Assembly: GCA_951812925.1 (NCBI GenBank)
Contig: OX638372.1
Location: 50,123,722 to 50,187,721, forward strand
Origin: Calliopum simillimum
Lineage: Eukaryota > Arthropoda > Insecta > Diptera > Lauxaniidae
Direction: 5' to 3'
DNA length: 64,000 bases
Both the position numbers and the translations under genes were made by a program. Shown one piece after another: positions 6,055-40,800 of this stretch. Position 1 is the first letter of the stretch. The number at the start of each line of letters is the position of its first letter. A model generated the notes under the pieces. That model ran no database searches. It was given only the letters and a program-made list of their open reading frames with translations, and was not told the DNA's origin.

Positions 6055-8632
6055 CTAACATTGGCCTTCATTGAGTACACACCATTTTGGTGTGATCGCA
6101 TCCGGTTGAATACCACGCGCTATCAAACGTTCGCGATAACGATAGAAGCGTGTTTCAGCAAAGATTACGGAAGTTTTAGGATCTGACCATAAACGTTCAG
6201 CTGCTGCGCCTGCGCGCGGCCAAATGCGTGGCTCTAGACAGAAGAAATTCAATCATATAAAAATCTTGAATCGTTCAAAGCCTTAAACAGTCTTACTTAC
6301 CTAAAGAATTTTGATCGACAAATTCAGACCACATGCATACTTCACCGCCCAACATTTTATCCTTTCGCTCTAAACGACTGCTGTAGACTGTACGCCAATT
6401 ATAGTAAGTGGTTTTTCCCCAAAAGCCATGATCTAAATACCATGCATTTTTGGTGGACACTATAATACGATAACCCCTGTTCATTAGTTCAGTATTTAAC
6501 GGTTGATCTGACTCTACCCAAGTCTGTATTATGAAACGTTCCTTTGGCAAAAAGTCCTCTATGATTTCTGGATCTGTTAGATGACTTGACCACAAGATAA
6601 CATCTTTTGGCGTATTACTCTTGCGACCATGCACTAAATTAGTCACATCATCATACGAATCTAAATTGCGTCTATGAAACTCTGACCATAATTTGTAAAA
6701 ACTGCGTATACTAAGATCATAGCCCTGATCAATCATTGCTTTGGTAATTTCTGGTGTTGAATTCCAACATGGTATATGCACTTCATCGCCCCCCATATGC
6801 ATGGTCTCATCGGGCTGTAAGACTTCAGCAAGATCTTGATAGATCTCTTTCATTATTGCGTACATATTATCGTTTAATGGATTAAGCTGTCCACATGGTG
6901 GCTGCACACAATATGAGCGCCAAGGCATTTGATTAACGCAAACAACTAGATTACCTTGTCCACTTATAGGACCCCACTGCCAGCCGTTGCCAGCATGTGA
7001 CGGTCCATCAATTTCAACAATGACACGTATACCACGCATTAAGGCGTATTTAATGATATTTTGCGTATCGGTGCGGGAATAAATTTGCTCCGGAGAGTAA
7101 GCGCCAAAACTATAAGAGATATAGAATTTAGATGTTAAAATGCAATTTTCTTTTTGTTGCCTATACCAGCAATGCCCATGAAAACTATTCGAAGAGTGGA
7201 ACATGAACTATCAACGTCACAAAGAAAGGAAACAAGCTAACCGCGCGAAAGTTGTAAACGTTCACGAGCTTGAAAATTACCAATTAAACACAAACTGCAA
7301 ATTATTTATTTTCGTGACGAGCCATATGGTGCATTGAAAACAATAACAAAGCAATAGAAAGCATATGTGCAGTAGCAAACTGAATTCCTAGTGTTACAAC
7401 ACACATTTGAAATTGTACAAAAAATAAATGTTTTTGTAAAAGTGCAAACAATGGAAAAAGTTAAATGGGCATTCCGGGTCTAGACACAAGAGATTCAAAG
7501 GTTATGGATGTAAGAAACATATAAAATCACATTGATTTAACTATTTGAAAATCACCTGAGGTACTTCCAAACAAACATTTTAACAGTAAGAAAAATATGT
7601 ACAAAAAATAAGCCTCTTAACTGAACTTACCGTGTCAATTCTGGCACGCGTACCACTTCTAGTGGAAAACTATGAGAATCTACAGCATGCCAATGGAATA
7701 CATTTAGCTTAGATGCTGCCATTCCATCTAAAGTACTACGTATATAACGTACTGGAATAAAATTTCGTGCTGTATCCAAAAGAAGACCACGATGTGCAAA
7801 TATAGGGCGATCTTCAACTCGTGCAGCGCTAACAAGTAACAGGCCATTTCTAACGTAAACATAAAATCTCAATAAAAATATGCAAAAAGTAAGTGGATTT
7901 AAATTCACTCACTCAATGCTACCCGTTACCAAATTACTTAAAGTTTCCAGACCAAGACGTGCGCCAAAAACTGTTTCTGCCTTAACTTCAATAAATGTGG
8001 CCTGACCTGAAATTGAAAACTATTACCATTGTGTCATGTTATTATAGTTAGCCTACACACTCTACCACTTACCTGTTGTTCTAATATTCAACTTGTACGA
8101 CTCATCGGTCTCTAAATTAAGTACCAAACTGCTTGAATTTACTGTGGTTTTTATCAAAATTTCTTTACCAACGCTTAATGTGCAGTTTCGTATACATTCC
8201 TTCAGTAGATTACTTACAAAAATACGATTGGTCTCACGTAAGTACTGACTGCTCTGTGCACTTGGAGCGACCACATTAAAGCGTACTTTCCATGGATCGA
8301 AATGCACACGTTCACTGCCCAAATTGCAGTCACCAGTGGGCATAGGCCAAATAGCACCATATTTCCCACAAGATAAGCGACAGTCATTCTGACTTTCGAA
8401 ACGTTTTGCATCACCAATTTCAGGTGCATTATCTTTCACACAAAGATAATTGTCTGTACAGATCCATTTCTGTCTGCTACTGACGAAGAAATAAAAAGTT
8501 GAAGAAATATGAAAGTTAATTATGAAGTTGCAAAACTACGTACTTTTCATCTGGAGTAGTTGAAGCTGGTGAAACTCGTATAAAAATCAGTAGTGGAATG
8601 AATAGTGCATTAAATATTTGCTTCAGATACAT
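6055..8632 (-). CDS. GH20 beta-N-acetylhexosaminidase, HexA (chitooligosaccharidolytic type)
   Basis: Six exons (transcript order): 8632-8544, 8476-8073, 8006-7913, 7849-7631, 7109-6301, 6233-6055. All junctions are GT-AG; the sum is 1794 nt, 597 aa. Exon 1 encodes a signal peptide (MYLKQIFNALF..., hydrophobic, ending near SPAS), so the enzyme is secreted. Exons 2-3 hold the N-terminal GH20b-like domain with the Cys-rich CRLSCGKYGAIWP block. Exons 4-6 hold the catalytic barrel: HRGLLLDTARN, FHWHAVD, IDGPSHAGNGW (D303, H307), HMGGDEV (D377, E378 = assisting Asp and acid/base Glu), IIQTW, WYLDHG and CMWSE. All pocket residues known from insect chitinolytic hexosaminidases are present, so it should release terminal GlcNAc from chitooligosaccharides or N-glycans. 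The IDGPSHAGNGW / PPCGQLNP pattern resembles the fly Hexo2 group as I remember it; Hexo1 or Fdl is not excluded. First of three tandem copies. Confidence 0.92.
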
Positions 8633-14297: not shown

Positions 14298-16400
14298 GTG
14301 CAGGCAAATTAGGTATTCATTTCTAATTTCGTTGAACATGCACCGATTTTGATCCGACAGGGCTCATTTTGTTCGTAAAAAAATTTAAAACAAAACCAAC
14401 ACATTAGTTTTTTCCGCCCTTTTCCCAAAATTTCTTTAGTCCCCCGTGAACCTTCAAAATCGGATAAATTCAATAAAGCTGTTCTAAAATGCTTAAAAAT
14501 AAAAAACTCAAAATGGCGCCCAGAAAACTGCGTACATACCCATTTTAAGCACCAAAAATGGGAAAAAATCGTTATAGGGGGTTTTAGCCTAGAAGTCTTG
14601 TTACATTGAATGAATTTATACGGTCGGTGTGGGATATTGTTTTTTATACTATAAAAAGTAAAGTTTACCAAAATTTTTTTTGGGTTTTTGATTTGTTTAT
14701 TATTTAAGCAATAACTATAAAAAGTTAATACAACTCAAAATTAAAAATATTTATAACATTTTGCAAACCATTTTTTCTAAACTAATTTGAGGTCGCTGAA
14801 CACGAAAAAACCCAATTATTTTTTTTTTCCTTGCGGCCGTTCCCGAGTTATTCGTTAATTTATATTTTCGAGGTTATAGCTTCATATACATCAATATATT
14901 TCTATGACGCCAAGTTCGATCAATTTTATTTTTCCACGTTTACAAAGAGTGATTAATGGCACTTCTAACGATTGTACCAATGATTATGCTTCGAACAAAA
15001 TTAACTGAGTTATAGCAGGAAAATTTTTGAAATTTCAAAAATTTTTGAAATTTTTCACATCAACTTCAGATGAAACATTTGGTTTTTGGCATATAATTTT
15101 TTTAAATATTTGTTTTTTAGTAATTTTATTAAATGGCGCATATAATTGCAAACATTTTAAGCCTATGTTGAGCAAAATCGAATGAAATTTCCAAAAGATA
15201 TTAAGGTTTTAGTGCAATAAGGAAGATGTGAGAATTTTCGAAATGTTCGGCCTGAGTCAACAGATCCAATTTTTCAGCCTCCAGATAGGACACCCTACAC
15301 TTATCGAACACTTTAAAGATGTTCTAAGTAACTTCTAATCATTCTCTGTAGAAGAACATTGCAGATTGTATCAAAAATATTAATTTTTGAAAGAAATCGA
15401 AATTTCCCTATTGCACTAAAACCTCAATTTCTTTTGGAAATTGCATTCGATTTTGCTCAACATAGGCTTAAAATGTTTGCTATTATATGCGCCATTTAAT
15501 AAAATTACTAAAAAACAAATATTTAAAAAAATTATATGCCAAAAACCAAATGTTTCATTTGAAGTTGATGTGAAAAATTTCAAAAATTTGTGAAATTTCA
15601 AACATTTTCCTGCTATAACTCAGTCAATTTTGTTCAAAGCATAATTATTGGTATAATCGTTAGAAGCGCCCTTAATCCCTCTTTGTAAACGTGGAAAAAT
15701 AAAATTGATCGAACTTGGCGTCATAGAAATATATTGATGTATATGAAGCTATAACCTCGAAAATATAAATTAACGAATAACTCGGGAACGGCCGCAAGGA
15801 AAAAAAATAATTGGGTTTTTCGTGTTCAGCGACCTCAAATTAGTTTAGAAAAAATGGTTTGCAAAATATTACAAATATTTTTAATTTTGAGTTGTATTAA
15901 CTTTTTATAGTTATTGCTTAAATAATAAACAAATCAAAAACCCAAAAAAAATTTTGGTAAACTTTACTTTTTATAGTATAAAAAACAATATCCCACACCG
16001 ACCGTATAAATTCATTCAATGTAACAAGACTTCTAGGCTAAAACCCCCTATAACGATTTTTTCCCATTTTTGGTGCTTAAAATGGGTATGTACGCAGTTT
16101 TCTGGGCGCCATTTTGAGTTTTTTAATTTTCCAACATCAAATTTGGATTCAGCAATCTAGAGAACCCCGTGAATAGCATAACTTTGCATTTTTAAGCATT
16201 TTAGAACAGCTTTATTGAATTTATCCGATTTTGAAGGTTCACGGGGGACTAAAGAAATTTTGGGGAAAGGGCGGAAAAAACTAATGTGTTGGTTTTGTTC
16301 TAAATTTTATTACGAACAAAATGAGTCCTGTCGGATCAAAATCAGTGCATGTTCAACAAAATTAGAAATGAATACCTGTTTTTACCTAATTTGCCTGCAC
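14298..16400. mobile_element. 2.1-kb giant palindrome / foldback element with TA target duplication
   Basis: The termini are GTGCAGGCAAATTAGG and its exact inverse, flanked on both sides by TA (14296-14297 and 16401-16402), which fits a Tc1/mariner-type target. The arms are ~0.95 kb and look about 95% identical, spanning atggcgcccagaaaactgcg, acggtcggtgtgggatattg and taactcgggaacggccgc. The loop lies around 15240-15400. The right arm carries ~65 bp (about 16125-16190) that the left arm lacks. Arm-internal open frames are mirror images of non-coding sequence; no transposase was found. Confidence 0.88.
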
Positions 16401-26969: not shown

Positions 26970-29643
26970 TTAACCACATAGGCCCTCATTTAGCGCACAC
27001 CACTTCTCAGTTACAACCTGAGGATTACATCCTCGTGTAATCAAGCGTTCACGATAGCGATTGAAACGAAATTGAGCTTCTCCATGTTTTGTATCTGGAT
27101 CTGACCATAAGCGTTCTGCAGCTGCACCTGCGCGAGGCCAGATGCGTATCTCTAGACACAGACAAGATAAAGAAATAAATCACTTTATTTTTTAGTTCTT
27201 AACAAGTTAGTGGAATTATTATTAATTTTTATCAAGTCACCTCACTTACCAAAAGTTTTCTCATCAAACATTTCAGTCCACAAGCACACTTCACCACCCA
27301 GCGTTAATGCACTTCGATCTATACGATGATTGTACATGACACTCCAGTCATGGTATGTAGCTACTCTAGCACCATGATCTAAGTACCAGCTAAATTTATT
27401 AGACATTATAATGCGATAACCTTTAGCTCTTAGTTTCTCATTAGTCTTAGGGTCGGTATTCCAAACCTGTATGATATATCGTTCCTTTGGTAGATATTTC
27501 TCGATAATTTCTATATCTGTAAGGGCACTACTCCATATGATAACATCCTTTGATGCATTTGTTTTGCGATGACTTAGATTGTGCATTACTTCGTCATAAG
27601 CTTCTAAAGCGCGTCTATGAAAATCTGACCATAGATTATGACCCTTATCAATCATGGCACTCTTAATTTCTGCATTTGAATTCCAGCATCCGAAGTTAAC
27701 TTCATCGCCACCCATATGCATGATTTCGTCGGGAGGCAAGACTTCAGAAAGATATTGATAGATGGCTTTCATTACCATATAGGTATTATTGTTTATTGGA
27801 TTAAGTTGTCCACAAGGCGGTTGTATGCAATAAGATTTGTATGGAGTTTTATTAACGCAAACAGCGAGCTCGCCAAGCCCTCTTTCAGGACCCCACTGCC
27901 AGCCGTTGCCTGCATGTGATGGCCCATCAATTTCGAAGAGCACGCGTATGCCACGCACTAAAGCGTATTTCACAATATTTAGGATATCCGCACGACGGTA
28001 TATCTGTTTTGAGGAATATGCGCCAGTGCTGGAAAAGATTACAGTTAAAATTTTCCTTAAGCCTATAGGGTATAATCGATAAGGTTACGAAGCTTCTGGC
28101 AGGCAAAAGAGGAGGCCTGAAGGTTTAAAATGTACCCCTGATGAGCAATGGGGTTAAAACTGATTTTCTGCCGTGTTTTAGAAAAAACCAATTTCTTGGG
28201 TCACCCTTACGTTTTAGAGAATACTTTGAAAGCTAATACAATAAGCTAAAAGTTTCCTATAAAAAAATTTTTCTCTAAAACGATAGGGTGACCCAAGAAA
28301 TTTTTCTTCCGAAAACAAGTCATAATATCAGCTTTAACCCTATAACTCCTCAGGGATACATTTTAGACTCCACCAGGTGAAACTTTTTTTTGTAATCCAA
28401 ACTTTCTCTATCACCTCCCAGAATCTTCGTAAACATATCGATTACACCCTATATAATTTACCGTGCCATTTCCGGAAAGCCAGGTATCTCCAGCGGGAAA
28501 CTATGAGTATCTGTTGCATGCCAGTGAAAAACATTCAACTTAGATGCTGCCATGGCATCTAAAGTTTTGTGTATATAGTAAACTGAAAAAAAATTTCGTG
28601 ATGTATCTAAGAGTAGACCACGATGGGCAAATTTAGGCCGATCCGAAATATTTGCCCTGCTAACAAGCAATAAATCATCTCTAAAAAGTGAAAAATGACC
28701 AATAAAATTTAGTGAAAGTAAAATATGGATGCGATCGAAAACTCACTCCATGCTATTTGTTGCCAAATTACTTAGGGTCTCCAAACCATGACGTGCACCA
28801 AATATTGTTTCAGCTGAAATTTCTATTGCTGTAGTATGATCTGAAATTGAACAATGATGCTATATGATGGCTTGGTCTATAAAATTCAGCATTATACTTA
28901 CCAACTGTTGTGACATTCAATATATATGACTCATCAGTATCTAAACCAAGATCCAAACGATCTGTTTTCACTGTCACGTTTACCTGTATATAAATACCTG
29001 TACTATTGGCTAATGTACAACTTCGTATGCATTCTTTAAGTAAATTTTGTATCAAAATGTCTTTGGCCTCATGTAAAAAGCTTGTACTTTCTACAGTTGG
29101 AGCGTTCACATTAAAATGCAACGAAAATGGATCGAAATGTACGCGTTCATCTCCCAGAATACAGTCACCAGTTGGCATGGGCCAAATTGCACCATATTTG
29201 CCACAAGATAAACGACAATCCTTTTGGCTTTGAAAAGTTAACAAAGTGAGATTTTGTGGCTCCACGGCTATGCGGCAAAATTTATTTGATACGCAAACCC
29301 ATTTCTTGCTGTTGGAAAGTAATATAAAATTAAGTATAAGAAAAATCATATCAGACGTGCACAATGGTTTTGCTTTTTTCTGGAATTAATTGATTGGTGA
29401 CTCTAATTTAGAGTTGTAAGCATTTTCTTTTTACACGTCAACTTTTGCATTCCTTACTAAAAAAGCTTTAAGTTATTGAAATAAAAATATAGTTTGAATT
29501 AAAACTTTTCGCTGGAAGGTAAAAGTTAAAAACTCTGACTTTGCACGTTGTATAGGAACATACTTATCATATGTTGAGGCTGGTATAAGAATACTCATCA
29601 ATAGTGGGATAACGATATAATATAATATTTGGATCAAACACAT
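26970..29643 (-). CDS. GH20 beta-N-acetylhexosaminidase, HexB
   Basis: Six exons (transcript order): 29643-29564, 29308-28902, 28840-28747, 28680-28462, 28028-27250, 27151-26970. The sum is 1761 nt, 586 aa. Exon sizes and phases match HexA (exons 3 and 4 are identical in length, 94 and 219 nt). Exon 1 gives a signal peptide (MCLIQILYYIVIPLLMSI). The catalytic residues are intact: IDGPSHAGNGW, HMGGDEV (D375, E376), IIQVW, WYLDHG, CLWTE. It should be an active secreted exo-hexosaminidase. It lacks the seven-residue SIRSFYK segment of HexA. The intron 4 donor is GTAAAT, weaker than GTAAGT in the other two copies, and a foldback element (28066-28451) begins 8-10 nt inside that intron. The start was chosen because the signal-peptide exon splices in phase and sits ~50 nt below a TATA box. 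It is more similar to HexC than to HexA in exon 4. Confidence 0.92.
28066..28451. mobile_element. 386-bp foldback element in HexB intron 4, TA duplication
   Basis: Termini TAGGGTATAATCGAT (left) and TAGGGTGTAATCGAT (right, inverted) are flanked by TA at 28064-28065 and 28452-28453. Inner arms share ttcttgggtcaccct. The right end lies only ~8 bp from the intron 4 donor at 28460-28461. Confidence 0.8.
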
Positions 29644-31582: not shown

Positions 31583-34500
31583 TTAACATTTGCCTTCGTT
31601 TAGCATACACCATGTCTCTTTAACAGCTGCTGGCTCGAAACCACGTGTAATCAATCGTTCACGATAGCGATAGAAACGCCATTTCGCTTCTCCAGAATTT
31701 GGATCTGACCATAAACGTTCAGCAACTGCACCTACTTGAGGCCATATTTTTTGCTCTAAAAGAAAAAAACAGTAGACCAACTTTATAATGAATTATGTAT
31801 AAAAACACTTCTTCGAACTCAACATAACATTCAACCTACCCAACGTTTCAGGATCAACCAATTTACTCCACATGCAAACTTCACCGCCCAGCATTAATGA
31901 ACTTTGATTTATACGATATTTGTACAAATCACCCCAGTTATGGTAATTTCTACCTCCTAAGTCCCATTTTTTGTTAGGAGACATTATAATGCGATATCCT
32001 CTATCTCTTAGCTTGGCATCTAGTTCCTCGTTGGGATTCCGAACCTGTATTATATAACGTTCCTTTGGTAGATATTTTTCAATTCTTAATGGATCTGTTA
32101 GGCTACTACTCCATATGATGACATCCTTAGGTGCATTTGCCTTACGAACATTCAAACTTTTCGTCACATAGTCGTAGGCCTCAAGTGTACGCTTATGAAA
32201 CTTTCCCCATAGATCATAAAAATCGATATCATTTTTGACTTGTGTTTGCCAGCATTTGGACTGCACTTCATTGCCTCCCATATGTATGGTCTCATCGGGT
32301 TGTAAGACCTTAGCAAGATATTGGTAAATTTTTTTCAAAACAACATATACATTGTCGTTTAGTGGATTTAAATGCCCGTTTAAAAGTAAAGGATCTGTGC
32401 AAATTGTTAAATTGCCAAGTTGTTTATCAGTACCCCATTGCCAACCACTGCCTGCATTCGATGGTCCAGAGATTTCGACGAGCACACGTATACCACGTGT
32501 CGAAGCATATTTTATAATGTCTTCGATATCTGCACGGGAGTATATCTCCGTTGAAAAAAAGGCACCATAGCTGGAAGAGATCGTTGAGTGTTTTTAAGAA
32601 TATGTTTTTTTATTTTAATTTTCTCAAAAAAATCTCAGCTAGGTTAGGTTAGGTTAGATCCGGGAGATGAACATGTCGTCATCATTAACTTTGGCTTCGA
32701 GAAAGGGCCCATTGTATACCCGATACTAAGAGCTTTAGCAGAGAAAGTCTAAGAGAACCACTTGGATGTACATATATACTTCCATATGGATTTTAGACAC
32801 ACCTCAGATATTGAGTCAAGCGATTCCAAATTGAAATGAAAGACTGTTTCTTCCATATCAGGGTCTTTACAACTTCTACAAAGGTTGCCAATGTTTGAGA
32901 AACCTAAGCAAGATGCAAGGATTCCCATGGCACAATATCCAGTAATCGCACCGATTAAGATCCGTACATTATGTTTCTCCATTGCTATTAAAAATTTTAT
33001 TACGATTTATACTATATGATGGGCAAATAGATCTAATATGATTGCAAGCTTGAAGATTTTACCATCTAGAATTAGCAAGCTGAATACATTTATTTTCGAT
33101 TTTTCACTTGATTACGCTTATAGGTTTTTTTTATTGAAAGGTCAGCTAAAAGCGTATTTTGGTTTGACCCTATTTTAGCCAGATCATCTGCAATTTCGTT
33201 GCCCTCGAAATTACTATGACCTGGAACCCATCAAAGTATTAAATTATAGTCCTCGCTAATATCACAAAGGATATTCCTATAGCTTAACACAAGTTTTGAC
33301 GTGATATAATTTGAAGAAATTGCTTTAATAGCCAGCCGGCTATCAATGTAAATAACAATGCTTCCAAGAAATTGGAACTTATTAGCATTGAGGATTTCAC
33401 AAGCTTTACGAACAGCAAAAACCTTTGCCTGAAAGACACTACAGTCGTTTGGCAGTCTGTAAGATTTTGCTAAGTCTAAAGACTTAGAATAAATGCTGAT
33501 CCAGTGCCTGTATCAAATTTTGACCCATCCGTGTATATTTCAAAAGTTGCGTTTAAAGGAACCCAATTTTCTCTTTGAGGTTTTACCACCTGGAAGTTCG
33601 TTGGGAAGAGAAGGTGTGGTAAGAGGTAGTCAGTATCACCTATAACATCACAATCCATAAATTGGAGTAAGATACTATTATGACCAAAAGATTTCGATTT
33701 CCAGAACCCAATTCTTTAAGTCTAATTGCACTTTTCGCGGCCATGCTTCTGGCAAAAATATCAAGTGGTTCTAGGTGAAGAAGCGTTTCCAGTGCAGCAG
33801 TGGCAGTACTTAGTTTTAAAAAGTATATGGCTTTTCTTGTCGAACTTAAAATTAAGGTTCAAACCGTTATTGAACAAAATGTGATTTTGACATTGAGTTT
33901 TTCCTTGAGCATAAAGTCTTGGTCTCTTCGTCAGGTGCCAAATTACTTTCATGCATGAAAGGCGCGTGACACACTTATTAATTATAAATTATCAAGACCG
34001 AAAACCAGTCTGGGTTTTGATGACCATCGTGGCCAAGTTCAAGAAAATAGCAGTCTTAGTCTTGAAATTATATGAGCGATTTTGTCTTGATCTCGAAAAA
34101 TAATCAAGATAAAGACTTATTTTGCTCATCACTATAAATACGAAACATGAAAAATAATTATTTAACATCTTGCTGATGCTAGAACCATCATAAAGCAGTT
34201 CAGTATCGGTTTGATTACAGTGCGTAAAAGTAATTTCTTTAGTGTTCAAAGTGTGATCATATGTTAATAACAGTGAGCTCAGGAAAATCTGTATGTTAAG
34301 TGACTACTTTTCGCCAAGAAAAACGAATTGCTGTAAAAATTAAACAAAACATCGCTCAGTAGTTGCCAATCTTTTGTTAAGGCACTAAATCTTTAAAGAT
34401 AATTATAGCGTTTAGCTGCAATTAATAACAAAATTAGTGCTTCAAATCAGTATGGTGCAGTCCTTGTGATTATTATTTTCCTAAACTTACCGTGTCATTT

Positions 34501-36324
34501 CAGGAACACCAGGTATCTTCAGCGGGAAACTCTGTGCATCTGTCGCATGCCAATGAAAAACATTCAACTTAGATGCTGCCATGCCATCTAAGGTCTTACG
34601 TATATTTTCGACCGGAAAAAAATTGCGTGAAGTATCGAAAAGTAGACCACGATGAGCAAATTTAGGCCGGTCCGAAATATGTGCAGAACTAACAAGTAAT
34701 AAGCCGTTTCTAAAATGTAAAAAAAAGTCCAATGAAATTAAATAAAACTTGAAAGGTGCGAATGAAAACTCACTCCATGCTGCCTGTTGCCAAATTACTT
34801 AGAGTTTCCAAACCAAGACGTGCACCAAACACCGTTTCAGCTGAAATTTCTATAGCTGTCTCATAGTCTGAAATTGAACATTGAGATTATTTGATTGTTT
34901 TCATTACAAATTTAGCGCATTCTAGCTCTTTAGTACCTGCCGTTGTGACATTCAACATATATGATTCATCTGTATTTAAGTCAAGAATCAAACTGCTTGA
35001 TTTTACTATGATGTGTACCTGTACATCTGTACTTTTTGCTATTGAACAATTTTGAGTGCATTCTTTGAGTAAATTTTGTATAAAAATATCTTTGGACTCA
35101 AGTATAAAGTTTGTACTTTCAGTAGTTGGAGCGTTCACATTAAAATGCATCTCTAAGGGATCGAAATGTGTGCGTTCATCTCCCAGAATGCAGTCACCAG
35201 TTGGCATTGGCCAAATCGCACCATATTTGCCACAGGATAAGCGACAATCATTTTTATTTTCAAAATGTACTTTATCAGAGCTTGCAGTGCCCTGAATTTT
35301 TGAGCACAAGCTTTTCTCTTGATTGCAAAGCCATTTTCGACTGCTAGTAAGAAGTATAAAATTAAATCATTCATGTTCATTATGTATATGAAGCAATCCA
35401 CGCCAAGTGTACCAGCTCGAAATTTTTTTTTCTCCGATTTCGCTCAAATTAGGCAAGCATCTTACGAAAAAAGTGTATTAGGCAAAAAATGCTAAAAATC
35501 GTCCAAGCAATACGTGTGATTTTTTGGATTTTTTTTTGAAACTTTTTTTTGAATAAGTTTTGAAAATTTTTTTTTTACTCAAAAAAAAAAACATTTTTTA
35601 ACTTTCCAAAAAATTCCCAAAAAATTTCACACTTATTTCCTTGATGATTCTAAGCATTTCATGCCTCGTACACTTTTTTCGTAAGATCCTTTCCTCTTGA
35701 GTAAAAAAAGATTTTTGCCTGCCGTGGGCGTTCAAAAGCCAAAAACTCTCATTTAGCGTCCGAATCCCATCTTGAGTCATACATCATTTTAAAGCTTATA
35801 AATTATGCTTTAGTTTAAAGTACTTTTAAAAAAAATCTAAGGTGGGTTTTTTTAAAAAAAATTCAAAAGTACTTTTAAGTGTAAAAAATGTTGGTGAAAA
35901 AAAAATTTTTTTATCAAGAAATATTTTTTTTATAAAAAGAACACTTCAAAATTAATGGGACCAGTAACTTAGATTTATCAATTTACAAACTTTAGTGTAA
36001 GCTATAAATTTTTGAAAAAAAACACCCTTTTCATGAAAATTACTAAAAACGCCAACTTCAACACCCTGTATTTTAACAACAAATGATACTAGGACCAAAT
36101 CCTCCCGGATTATTGTTGTTGCATACCAAATCTACCATATTGCGAAATTTGAGCGAAATCGGAGAAAAAAACACTCTGAGCTGGTACACTTGGCGTGGAT
36201 TGCTTCATATGGATGTGTTCATTCATATGAGAACATACTTATCATGTGCATTTGTTGAGGCCGGTATGAAAATATTCATCAGGATTGGTATAAAGACAAG
36301 TTTTATTGACTGCTTTAAATTCAT
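31583..36324 (-). CDS. GH20 hexosaminidase-like protein HexC with destroyed active site (putative pseudoenzyme)
   Basis: Six exons (transcript order): 36324-36239, 35343-34937, 34867-34774, 34709-34491, 32570-31840, 31755-31583. The sum is 1710 nt, 569 aa, no stop or frameshift, all GT-AG. A signal peptide (MNLKQSIKLVFIPILMNI) and the N-terminal GH20b domain are conserved. In the barrel the pocket is lost: D303 to S and H307 to N (EISGPSNAGSGW), catalytic Asp to Asn (HMGGNEV, N369), Trp to Arg (IIQVR, R446), WYLDHG to WDLGG (Tyr and Asp gone) and WSE to WSK (K505). An eight-residue deletion removes two cysteines (SYC.QPPC in HexA/B). Arg of HRGLL, Glu of GGxEV and Trp of HNW remain. It is therefore almost certainly not a retaining hexosaminidase; it may bind glycan or dimerise, or be a very recent pseudogene. 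Introns 1 and 4 carry transposons. Confidence 0.88.
32637..32656. repeat. (TTAGG)n-like tail of the intronic LINE
   Basis: aggttaggttaggttag is three units of the pentamer and forms the 3' tail of the minus-strand LINE fragment, not a telomere. Confidence 0.7.
32637..33850 (-). pseudogene. LINE 3' fragment (RT end and RNase H) in HexC intron 4
   Basis: On the minus strand, from about 33850, it reads KLSTATAALETLLHLEP, then AAKSAIRLKELG. RNase H follows: FEIYTDGSKFDTGTGS, AVRKACEILNANKF, VIYIDSRLAIKAI and WWVPGHSNFEGNEIAD. The C-terminal zinc-knuckle-like tail (VRILIGAITGYCAMGIL, CRSCKDPDMEETVFHF) comes last. A built-in RNase H points to the I-group of LINEs. Frames are broken, and the catalytic Glu position of RNase H reads FQAKVFA (Lys). 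The 3' end is a short (TTAGG)n-type tail at 32637-32656. It is 5' truncated and lies antisense to nothing: same strand as HexC, inside its intron. Confidence 0.75.
33851..34480. other. rest of HexC intron 4, nothing recognised
   Basis: AT-rich intronic sequence between the LINE fragment and exon 4. No repeat boundary or reading frame could be supported. Confidence 0.4.
35389..36207. mobile_element. 819-bp foldback element in HexC intron 1, TA duplication
   Basis: Termini TGAAGCAATCCACGCCAAG and its inverse continue through tgtaccagctc. TA flanks are at 35387-35388 and 36208-36209. Inner arms share tccgatttcgctcaaatt. The right end is ~30 bp from the HexC exon 1 splice donor (36237-36238). 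Confidence 0.85.
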
Positions 36325-36467: not shown

Positions 36468-37309
36468 CACAGGTTTACAAAAAAAAAAAAAAATGTCATG
36501 GCGTTTTGACCAGACTATGTGTTTCCTAGGGACTTTGACATCCCGAGTCCAAATCCGGGGTCCGTTTTTTTCCAGAAGGGCTGGAAAAAAATTTTTCAAG
36601 TTCATGTGTCGTTTAGTGATAAATTCGCTAAAATTCTGAAACTAATTTTTTATCATTGAGTTCTTAGTCCTTTAAAAGAATCTGTGATCAAAAAAGGTAC
36701 TTCGGACTTAGTTTCGGAGATATAGCCATCGGAAGATCCGGATATATCTTCTATAAAAACCGCTATAAGTTGGGAACTCCTGGATAAATTTGTAAAATAT
36801 TGATGTTATTCGAGCACATTTTCAATTGGATTCATAGTTTTCGAGATATGAGCTTTTTTGAAATTTTGTGAAATTTTTCAATTACAACAACAAATAAATC
36901 AACAACAGCAACAACAACAACAACAACAATAAAATACCTTTCATATGACATCAATATTTTTCAAATCCATCCAGGGGCTCCCAACTTATAGCGGTTTTCA
37001 TAGAAGATATATATTCTGATCTTTCGATGGCTATATCTCCCAAACTAGGTCTGAGATACCCTTTTTGATCACATATTCTTTTTAAGGCCTAAGAGCTCAA
37101 TGATTAAAAATTAGTTTCAGAATTTTAGCGAATTTATCACTAAACGACACATGAACCCCATTTTGACATCCATATGACCTTGAAATATTTTTTCTCAGAC
37201 GTTCTGGAAAAAAACGGACCCCGGATTCGGATTCAGGACGTCAATGTCCCTAGGAAACACATAGTCTGGTCAAAACGCCATGACATTTTTTTTTTTTTGT
37301 AAACCTGTG
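36468..37309. mobile_element. 842-bp foldback element with CACAGG termini, TTA duplication
   Basis: Arms start CACAGGTTTACAAAAAAAAA and mirror over ~350 bp (atgtcatggcgttttgacca, tatgtgtttcctaggga, cgctataagttgggagc-type inner part). The spacer carries (CAA)n at about 36890-36930. TTA sits on both flanks (36465-36467, 37310-37312), as in PIF/Harbinger-type insertion. It lies only ~145 bp upstream of the HexC start codon. Confidence 0.82.
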
Positions 37310-39703: not shown

Positions 39704-40800
39704 TCATGTTTTGACCTGCACGATTATCATGTAAATCATAATCGACCAACAGCTCCCTATATTGGAATATGAAAAGACATACATGTACAGTAGGGTGTCC
39801 CTTATTTGGAAAAAAGTCAAAATTTTATGTCGCGCTCCCCCAGAATCGAAAGACTTTGAGAAAAAAATGAGATCCCCCAAAGGGCAGGTTTTTTTAAACG
39901 AATTAACCTGTGCCACGAAGACATTCAAATTTATATGAAAATTAACATAGATTTTATATACTTCTTGTTTTAACTTGCTGGGAATCGCGTTGCCTGAAAT
40001 ATTTTTCGCCATCAAATGTGTATCTTATTGTTTTTCGGGTCACTGAACACGATACAAGTGTCAAAATTAAATTTTGACAGCTGTCAACGGCTACAGAGCT
40101 GGCAAAACTCTTTAATTTTAAAGTTTTGTAAGTTTTGACTCTTTAATTTTTAAGTTTTGTGAGTTTTGACAGCTCTGTAGCCGTTGACAGCTGTCAAAAT
40201 TTAATTTTGACACTTGTATCGTGTTCAGTGACCCGAAAAACAATAAGATACACATTTGATGGCGAAAAATATTTCAGGCAACGCGATTCCCAGCAAGTTA
40301 AAACAAGAAGTATATAAAATCTATGTTAATTTTCTTCGTGGCACAGGTTAATTCGTTTAAAAAAACCTGTCCTTTGGGGGATCTCTTTTTTTTCTCAAAG
40401 TCTTTCGATTCTGGGGGAGCGCGACATAAAATTTTGACTTTTCCCAAATAAGGGACACCCTAATGTACAGCAAGATGCCAATATACTGTTTCAGCTCAGC
40501 AGATGTTACATTGAATCTGCTTCCAATGTCCTGTTTATAAGCATACATATTGCTATCTTTGGCAATTTTATCGAAAAAATCATCGGAGAAGAAATGCGTG
40601 AGGCATTCAATGGACGTTTTCAATTCATTAAAACTTTTGGGTGAATTTCTTTCGCAAAAACAATTATATTGTGGTGTAATTCCAAATGGTTTTTCTTCAT
40701 AAAATGTTTTAAACTGAGGGGATTGTGGATTGACGTCTATCGCACTTCCTACTTTTTACTAATGTTTCCTGTTGGATTTCTTGACACATCACTCATAATT
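39704..40800 (-). pseudogene. piggyBac-like transposase remnant, split by a foldback element
   Basis: Minus-strand frame (after removal of the 39791-40462 insert): VGSAIDVNPQSPQFKTFY, then ITPQYNCFCERNSPKSF, then SIECLTHFFSDDFFDKIA. Next come AELKQYIGILLYM and, beyond the insert, YVFSYSNIGSCWSIMIY. The FF.D...I..., ELK.YIGILLYM...P.IR.YWS pattern is typical of the N-terminal part of piggyBac/PGBD transposases (DDE_Tnp_1_7). An upstream possible start MSDVSRNPTG near 40790 is out of frame, so the copy is also frameshifted. The catalytic Asp residues further downstream are absent. Inactive. Confidence 0.7.
39791..40462. mobile_element. 672-bp hAT-type foldback element with 8-bp target duplication
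   Basis: Termini TAGGGTGTCCCTTATTTGG and its inverse are flanked by the 8-bp direct repeat ATGTACAG (39783-39790 and 40463-40470), diagnostic of hAT-class integration. The arms mirror almost base for base up to the centre near 40128 (aattttgacagctgtcaac etc.). It interrupts the piggyBac-like frame. Confidence 0.92.

What the first reader, a model, noticed from the sequence alone, without database searches (positions are those of the whole stretch)
31583..36324. HexC: full-length GH20 hexosaminidase whose catalytic pocket has been systematically replaced
All six exons, splice phases and the signal peptide are intact (1710 nt, no stop), yet seven pocket positions kept in HexA/HexB are changed: D303S, H307N, catalytic Asp to N369, Trp to R446, Tyr and Asp of WYLDHG to D472/G474, and Glu of WSE to K505. 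A two-cysteine segment is also deleted. In GH20 retaining enzymes the Asp-Glu pair and the Tyr/Asp/Trp cage are essential. Loss of nearly all of them with a preserved frame suggests either a secreted pseudoenzyme (glycan binding, decoy, dimer partner) or a very recent loss of constraint focused on the pocket.
Basis: partly seen in the sequence, partly recalled or inferred. Interest (0 to 1): 0.86.

Follow-up and report, generated by a model that had tools for sequence, protein, structure and literature searches.

The report
Dead sugar-cutting enzyme kept by flies
A fly carries three neighbouring copies of a sugar-trimming enzyme; the third has lost most of its active pocket yet still looks maintained by natural selection, and similar gutted copies seem to have arisen separately in tsetse flies and in a fruit fly.

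Summary
HexC (31583-36324, minus strand) is a complete six-exon gene of 568 aa. Six of the 11 published critical residues of its enzyme group are replaced (H306N, D368N, W445R, Y471D, Asp of WYLD to Gly, E504K), as is D302S, and both loops over the +1 sugar site are shortened. The catalytic Glu, Arg215, Asp252, Trp421 and Trp502 remain, so 'nearly all' is too strong.

It does not look like ordinary decay: branch dN/dS is 0.33 (omega=1 rejected, LR 15.2), like intact HexB (0.39), and 11 of 13 broken conserved positions lie in the pocket or its loops. A neutral phase short enough to leave no stop is too short to explain the pocket losses.

HexA is the fly Hexo2 counterpart; HexB and HexC are later local copies. 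New here: pocket-dead Hexo2 duplicates also occur in two tsetse species and in Drosophila obscura; the tree needs three separate origins. Best reading: a GH20 pseudoenzyme, perhaps a non-catalytic partner or decoy in male reproduction. That role is inferred from relatives; expression, activity and binding were not testable here. Five paper searches on this point listed no animal GH20 pseudoenzyme.

The parts
36239..36324 (-). HexC exon 1 (start codon, hydrophobic leader)
   Evidence: leader judged by eye
34937..35340 (-). HexC exon 2
34774..34867 (-). HexC exon 3
34491..34709 (-). HexC exon 4 (keeps Arg215 and Asp252)
31840..32570 (-). HexC exon 5: D302S, H306N, D368N, W445R, Y471D, WYLD Asp to Gly, E504K; 48 nt shorter than HexB exon 5, with the CVQPPC segment and part of the WYLDHG loop deleted
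31583..31755 (-). HexC exon 6 (R518Q) and stop
26970..29643 (-). HexB, sister copy with intact pocket, 586 aa, six exons
6055..8632 (-). HexA, conserved Hexo2-type gene with intact pocket, 596 aa, six exons
35382..36215 (.). inverted-repeat element inside HexC intron 1, flanked by an 8-base target duplication (35374-35381, 36216-36223); splice sites untouched

Best explanation
HexC is a secreted GH20 pseudoenzyme that was kept after gene duplication for a job other than hydrolysis. SHOWN BY SEQUENCE: local duplication of a Hexo2-type gene left a conserved copy (HexA) and a faster pair (HexB, HexC). On the HexC branch the GlcNAc pocket was dismantled (the Asp of the Asp-Glu pair, the His partner of the catalytic Glu, the sugar-holding Trp, Tyr, Asp and Glu, and parts of both +1-site loops), while the reading frame, the cysteines and the rest of the conserved positions stayed, with purifying selection on the branch as a whole. 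INFERRED: HexC cannot run the substrate-assisted GH20 reaction and should bind GlcNAc poorly; the retained fold acts through its surface, most likely as a non-catalytic partner or decoy of HexA/HexB-type enzymes, or as a structural protein, in the male reproductive tract or on sperm, where Hexo2-type enzymes of other insects occur. The general claim (retained pseudoenzyme) has the confidence given below; the reproductive setting about 0.5; the partner or decoy role over other surface roles about 0.4.
For: Intact six-exon frame; single locus in a chromosome-scale assembly. 6 of 11 published critical residues replaced against 7 of 61 other near-invariant columns; 11 of the 13 broken columns lie in the pocket or its loops (residue list from PMC3741120). 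Fast sister HexB keeps all 11. Branch omega 0.325, omega=1 rejected with LR 15.18, grid values 0.25-0.50 within 3.84 of the maximum; 0.308 without pocket codons, 0.357 for exon 5 alone. Neutral drift that leaves an open frame is too short for the pocket losses. The exon 5 peptide folds as confidently as that of HexB (pLDDT 87.0 and 86.8) and best matches OfHex1. Parallel pocket-dead Hexo2 duplicates in two Glossina species and D. obscura, three separate origins; the two Glossina proteins are 76% identical over 565 residues without a gap. Hexo2-group expression in testis (OfHex3) and contact between insect hexosaminidases (OfHex1 pulls down BmHex3): PMC3741120.
Against: No transcript, protein or activity data for this fly. 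Omega is an average over the branch since the HexB/HexC split, so a stop of constraint in the last small part of it is not excluded. The codon model has only three sequences and dS is about 1 on the HexA branch. The catalytic Glu, Arg215, Asp252 and two Trp are kept, so an altered enzyme is not excluded. The HexC exon 5 model fits OfHex1 less well than HexB's (rmsd 4.1 against 2.5 A). HexC introns 1 and 4 are long (898 and 1920 bp) and intron 1 holds an inserted element. No direct evidence places HexC in the male tract or with a partner.
Confidence: 0.7

Rival explanations
1. HexC is a young pseudogene: constraint ended recently and the gene has simply not yet gained a stop or frameshift.
For: Many normally invariant residues are gone, intron 1 carries an inserted element, and a neutral phase of 0.02 substitutions per site still leaves an open frame in 22% of 1000 simulations.
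Against: Omega=1 on the branch is rejected (LR 15.18) and HexC's omega is no higher than HexB's. In a neutral phase of 0.02-0.04 the chance of 6 or more pocket changes of 11 is 3e-6 to 1.4e-4, and the losses would not be centred on the pocket. A late death after an earlier pocket loss remains possible.
Confidence: 0.15
2. HexC is a lectin-like protein that still binds GlcNAc-bearing glycans in the old pocket without cutting them.
For: Arg215, Asp252, Glu369, Trp421 and Trp502 are kept. GH18 chitolectins are a precedent for a catalytic-residue loss with sugar binding retained (PMC1945033, passages).
Against: Four residues listed for substrate binding or stacking (Tyr, Asp, Glu, one Trp) are replaced and both +1-site loops are shortened (roles from PMC3741120 and PMC3531433), unlike chitolectins, which keep the binding residues.
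Confidence: 0.08
3. HexC is an enzyme with a new substrate or mechanism.
For: Glu369, Asp252 and Arg215 are kept, and the changes bring new charged residues into the cavity (R445, D471, K504).
Against: The Asp of the Asp-Glu pair, the His of the Asp-His-Glu network (network in PMC3531433, passages) and parts of both loops are gone. The parallel cases lose other combinations, including the Glu itself in Glossina brevipalpis (to Gln) and D. obscura (to Gly), which points to loss rather than to one new chemistry.
Confidence: 0.06

Closest known systems
Insect group III GH20 hexosaminidases (DmHexo2, OfHex3, BmHex3, TcNag2)
   Same: Sequence family, two Pfam domains, exon layout shared with HexA and HexB
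   Different: OfHex3 has all 11 critical residues and is active (PMC3741120, Results part 1 read); HexC lacks 6 of the 11
Pocket-dead Hexo2 duplicates in Glossina (P0026, P0029) and Drosophila obscura (P0028), pointed out here
   Same: Lineage-specific Hexo2 duplicates with 4 or 5 of 11 pocket residues replaced and most other conserved columns kept
   Different: Separate origins on the tree and different residue combinations; the listing gives them ordinary enzyme or family names
GH18 chitinase-like proteins (IDGFs, chitolectins)
   Same: Secreted glycosidase-fold proteins of flies and mammals that lack the catalytic Glu (PMC1945033, passages)
   Different: Another family; they lose mainly the catalytic Glu, while HexC keeps its Glu and loses the residues around it
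Sperm leucyl aminopeptidases (S-LAPs) of Drosophila
   Same: Duplicated enzymes whose active site diverged while the genes stayed, in sperm (PMC3078892, abstract and one section)
   Different: Peptidases; expression in testis and sperm is shown for them and not for HexC

Membership tests
GH20 (by homology) | GH20 catalytic domain by profile | tested here: met
   PF00728 over profile positions 1-347 of 348, 219.7 bits, cut-off 22.3
GH20 (by homology) | Barrel fold of solved GH20 enzymes | tested here: met
   Exon 5 peptide only: pLDDT 87.0; best PDB matches are OfHex1 entries, TM by query 0.76-0.80. Whole protein not folded
Active GH20 hexosaminidase | Catalytic Asp-Glu pair | tested here: not met
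   Asp is N368; Glu369 kept
Active GH20 hexosaminidase | The 11 residues listed as critical for OfHex3 | tested here: not met
   5 of 11 kept (list in PMC3741120)
Active GH20 hexosaminidase | Hydrolysis of terminal GlcNAc or GalNAc | not testable with these tools
   needs expressed protein
Insect group III / Hexo2 lineage | Groups with Hexo2-type proteins in a tree | tested here: met
   HexA, HexB, HexC clade at 100/99 inside the higher-fly Hexo2-type proteins
Pseudoenzyme retained by selection | Catalytic residues lost with the frame kept | tested here: met
Pseudoenzyme retained by selection | Purifying selection | tested here: met
   omega 0.325, omega=1 rejected, LR 15.18; an average over the branch, three sequences only
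Pseudoenzyme retained by selection | Expressed, folded product with a function | not testable with these tools
   no transcript or protein data for this fly

The most novel reading that the evidence does not exclude
Flies repeatedly turn duplicates of the Hexo2 hexosaminidase, a gene whose relatives are found in testis or on sperm in other insects, into pocket-dead pseudoenzymes that selection then keeps. At least three separate origins are visible (this fly, tsetse flies, Drosophila obscura). The surface of the GH20 fold, not its chemistry, would be what evolves in reproduction, for example as a competitor or partner of active hexosaminidases where sperm meets egg.
Probability: 0.5. Interest if true: 0.8.

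Novelty: new variant of a known kind. Interest (0 to 1): 0.62.

Why it matters
Retained dead enzymes are known in other families, including GH18 proteins (PMC1945033) and Drosophila sperm peptidases (PMC3078892). Five searches of the held papers that bear on this listed no GH20 pseudoenzyme of animals; the library lacks most subscription journals. Three parallel losses within one gene lineage are natural replicates for asking which parts of a hexosaminidase matter when catalysis does not. They would also make the old proposal that sperm hexosaminidases act in gamete recognition (PMC4554920, passages) testable apart from enzyme activity.

Tried and rejected
Sequence or annotation artefact: unlikely, because the changes are in frame, splice borders are intact and the gene has one locus in the assembly. 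Gene conversion: synonymous divergence between HexB and HexC differs among exons (dS 0.41-0.80), so some exons may have been partly homogenised; exon 5 alone still rejects omega=1 (LR 8.42). Orthology with the tsetse or D. obscura dead copies: rejected by the tree. Dimer interface: PMC2492878 (section 6 read) says one of the human HEXB contact residues, Tyr456, is replaced in insects, so I could not test it by residue. P0119 (a lepidopteran protein named fdl) also has 6 of 11 pocket changes but its listing shows an extra unrelated domain, so the model may be fused; it is not counted as an origin. P0080 is nearly the same as P0029 with missing parts. P0089 and P0095 have 2 substitutions each among the 11 and many other broken columns; not counted. 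Literature: ten paper searches were made. Searches asked about inactive copies or duplication; two returned no paper; the one paper (PMC7828330, a review on engineered glycan-binding proteins) and the one (a congress abstract book) were seen as listings only. Searches were for background; one search was on a human HEXA mutation (PMC10009996, passages), and nothing in the argument rests on it. Pfam gave no match for the RNase-H-like reading frame that I suspected by eye in HexC intron 4 (33231-33512).
Full report
WHAT IS THERE. The window lies on contig C5 (117 Mb) of a 690-Mb assembly. Three GH20 genes run on its minus strand: HexA 6055-8632 (596 aa), HexB 26970-29643 (586 aa) and HexC 31583-36324 (568 aa), each with six exons in the same phases. 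HexC has no internal stop, and a search of the own genome with its protein found no second copy of it. tblastn found no hexosaminidase fragment in the window outside these three genes. Elsewhere the genome search shows a tandem pair on C4, one locus each on C3 and C5, and one on a 70-kb contig that looks bacterial. Pocket motifs of the C4 pair, read by eye, look complete.

FAMILY. The 28 best database matches of HexC, all fly proteins where a name is given, are 45-51% identical (226 matched, 120 listed). HexA is 67-71% identical to seven non-drosophilid fly proteins. A tree of 33 rows (30 chosen from the 188 fetched homologues, plus the three genes) puts HexA, HexB and HexC in one clade (100/99) with HexB and HexC sisters (100/100). 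HexA has a short branch (0.08), HexB and HexC long ones (0.42, 0.49). That these proteins are the Hexo2 group rests on the group list in PMC3741120 (DmHexo2, OfHex3, TcNag2) and on rows named NAG2 or hexosaminidase 2 among the matches.

THE POCKET. PMC3741120 (Results part 1 read) lists 11 critical residues for OfHex3. HexC changes 6: H306N, D368N, W445R, Y471D, Asp of WYLD to Gly, E504K. It keeps Arg215, Asp252, Glu369, Trp421 and Trp502. It also has D302S and R518Q. Five of these changes are single-base; D302S and R518Q are two-base. Two stretches over the pocket are shortened. One is the YCVQPPC segment of HexA, which aligns with the OfHex1 segment holding V327 and E328 of the +1 site (residue roles from passages of PMC3531433; numbering offset worked out here). 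The other is WYLDHGARVATYHDW of HexB, now WDLGGRNYHNW.

MORE THAN FAST EVOLUTION. Among 72 columns at least 97% identical in 166 reference rows, HexC breaks 13: 6 of 11 pocket columns and 7 of 61 others. Of those seven, D302, C335, P338, C340 and G496 lie in the pocket or the deleted loop parts (the role of D302 is recalled), R544 does not, and P586 is changed in HexB too. HexB breaks 1 of 72. Of 13 pocket codons, 12 could be compared: HexB keeps 12 of 12 as in HexA, HexC 5 of 12; over the other 550 codons the two are alike (331 and 324 identical to HexA). Of all 191 rows, 180 have none of the 11 substituted.

SELECTION. A codon model written here (F3x4, kappa, one omega per branch, three-sequence star) gives omega 0.173 (HexA), 0.385 (HexB) and 0.325 (HexC), with dS 0.43 on the HexC branch. 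HexB and HexC do not differ (LR 0.18); omega=1 for HexC is rejected (LR 15.18); grid values 0.25 to 0.50 lie within 3.84 of the maximum. Without pocket codons omega is 0.308, for exon 5 alone 0.357 with LR 8.42, for the other exons 0.295 with LR 6.24. Neutral simulations from the HexB coding sequence keep an open frame in 22.4% of 1000 runs at 0.02 substitutions per site, 5% at 0.04, 0.9% at 0.06 and 0.4% at 0.10. At 0.04 six or more of 11 residues would change with probability 1.4e-4 (a simple binomial). So the pocket was most likely lost while the gene was still maintained. A later death of the gene is not excluded.

FOLD. With 50 homologues, the exon 5 peptide of HexC folds with mean pLDDT 87.0, that of HexB with 86.8. 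Both best match OfHex1, HexC less closely (rank 1: rmsd 4.1 A, TM by query 0.76; HexB 2.5 A and 0.85).

PARALLEL CASES. The 188 homologues are the listed rows of three searches (120 listed of 226, 1588 and 886 matches). Five have four or more of the 11 residues substituted: Glossina brevipalpis P0026 (4), G. fuscipes P0029 and its near-duplicate P0080 (4 each), D. obscura P0028 (5), and the lepidopteran P0119 (6, doubtful model). P0026 and P0029 each break 5 of 72 conserved columns: four listed pocket residues and D302. These two are 76% identical over 565 residues without a gap and differ in which residues are lost; P0029 keeps the Asp-Glu pair, P0026 has Gln for the Glu. P0028 also breaks four other columns, two of them a missing N-terminal stretch. 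It sits among obscura-group duplicates whose relatives P0023 and P0024 keep all 11 residues. Starred branches force three changes of state on the tree, and none of 200 bootstrap trees shows one origin. Protein sequences alone were at hand for these, so no omega was computed for them.

MECHANISM. Shown: duplication, pocket loss, constraint over the branch. Inferred: no GH20 hydrolysis and weak GlcNAc binding, so the surface of the fold is the likely target of selection, as partner or decoy of active hexosaminidases or as a structural protein. OfHex3 transcripts are highest in testis, its protein is mainly in fat body and testis and also in molting fluid, and OfHex1 pulls down silkworm Hex3 (PMC3741120, abstract and Results part 1). 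So contact between hexosaminidases has a precedent, and a role in molting is as open as one in reproduction. Two Drosophila hexosaminidases of the sperm membrane are candidates for egg recognition (PMC4554920, passages). In Glossina morsitans a gene described as beta-hexosaminidase stands, by row order, in a table of testes-biased genes (testes to accessory gland 133.63; PMC6251095, passages and section 5 part 1); whether it is the dead copy is unknown. S-LAPs of Drosophila sperm are the closest published pattern (PMC3078892, abstract and one section).

LIMITS. One genome, three sequences in the codon model, dS about 1 on the HexA branch, no relatives of this genome in the search tool, no expression data. 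The fly is not named; by HexA it falls next to the sampled tephritids, stalk-eyed fly, calyptrates and drosophilids, outside all of them.

Noticed in passing
35382-36215: Inverted-repeat element in HexC intron 1, arms 35386-35456 and 36140-36210 (71 nt, 92% complementary), flanked by the 8-base repeat TGTTCATT; splice sites are untouched.
   Followed up: partly
14306-16382; 36481-37298; 39812-40442: Three further large foldback structures with 90-98% complementary arms.
   Followed up: partly
40360-40755: Minus-strand fragment of a DDE_Tnp_1_7 (piggyBac-type, name recalled) transposase, E 5.4e-6.
   Followed up: no
1436-1723: Exon-sized frame of an ecdysteroid kinase-like protein (EcKL, E 1.2e-24).
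   Followed up: no
L001 (contig C238, 70 kb): Single 928-aa GH20 frame at 51% GC beside bacterial-looking frames (one Fur-like by recall): probably a bacterial contaminant or symbiont contig in the fly assembly.
   Followed up: partly
P0119 (Epargyreus clarus, a database protein): A protein named fdl with 6 of 11 pocket residues replaced; the listing shows an extra PF01490 domain, so the model may be fused, but it hints at GH20 inactivation outside flies.
   Followed up: partly
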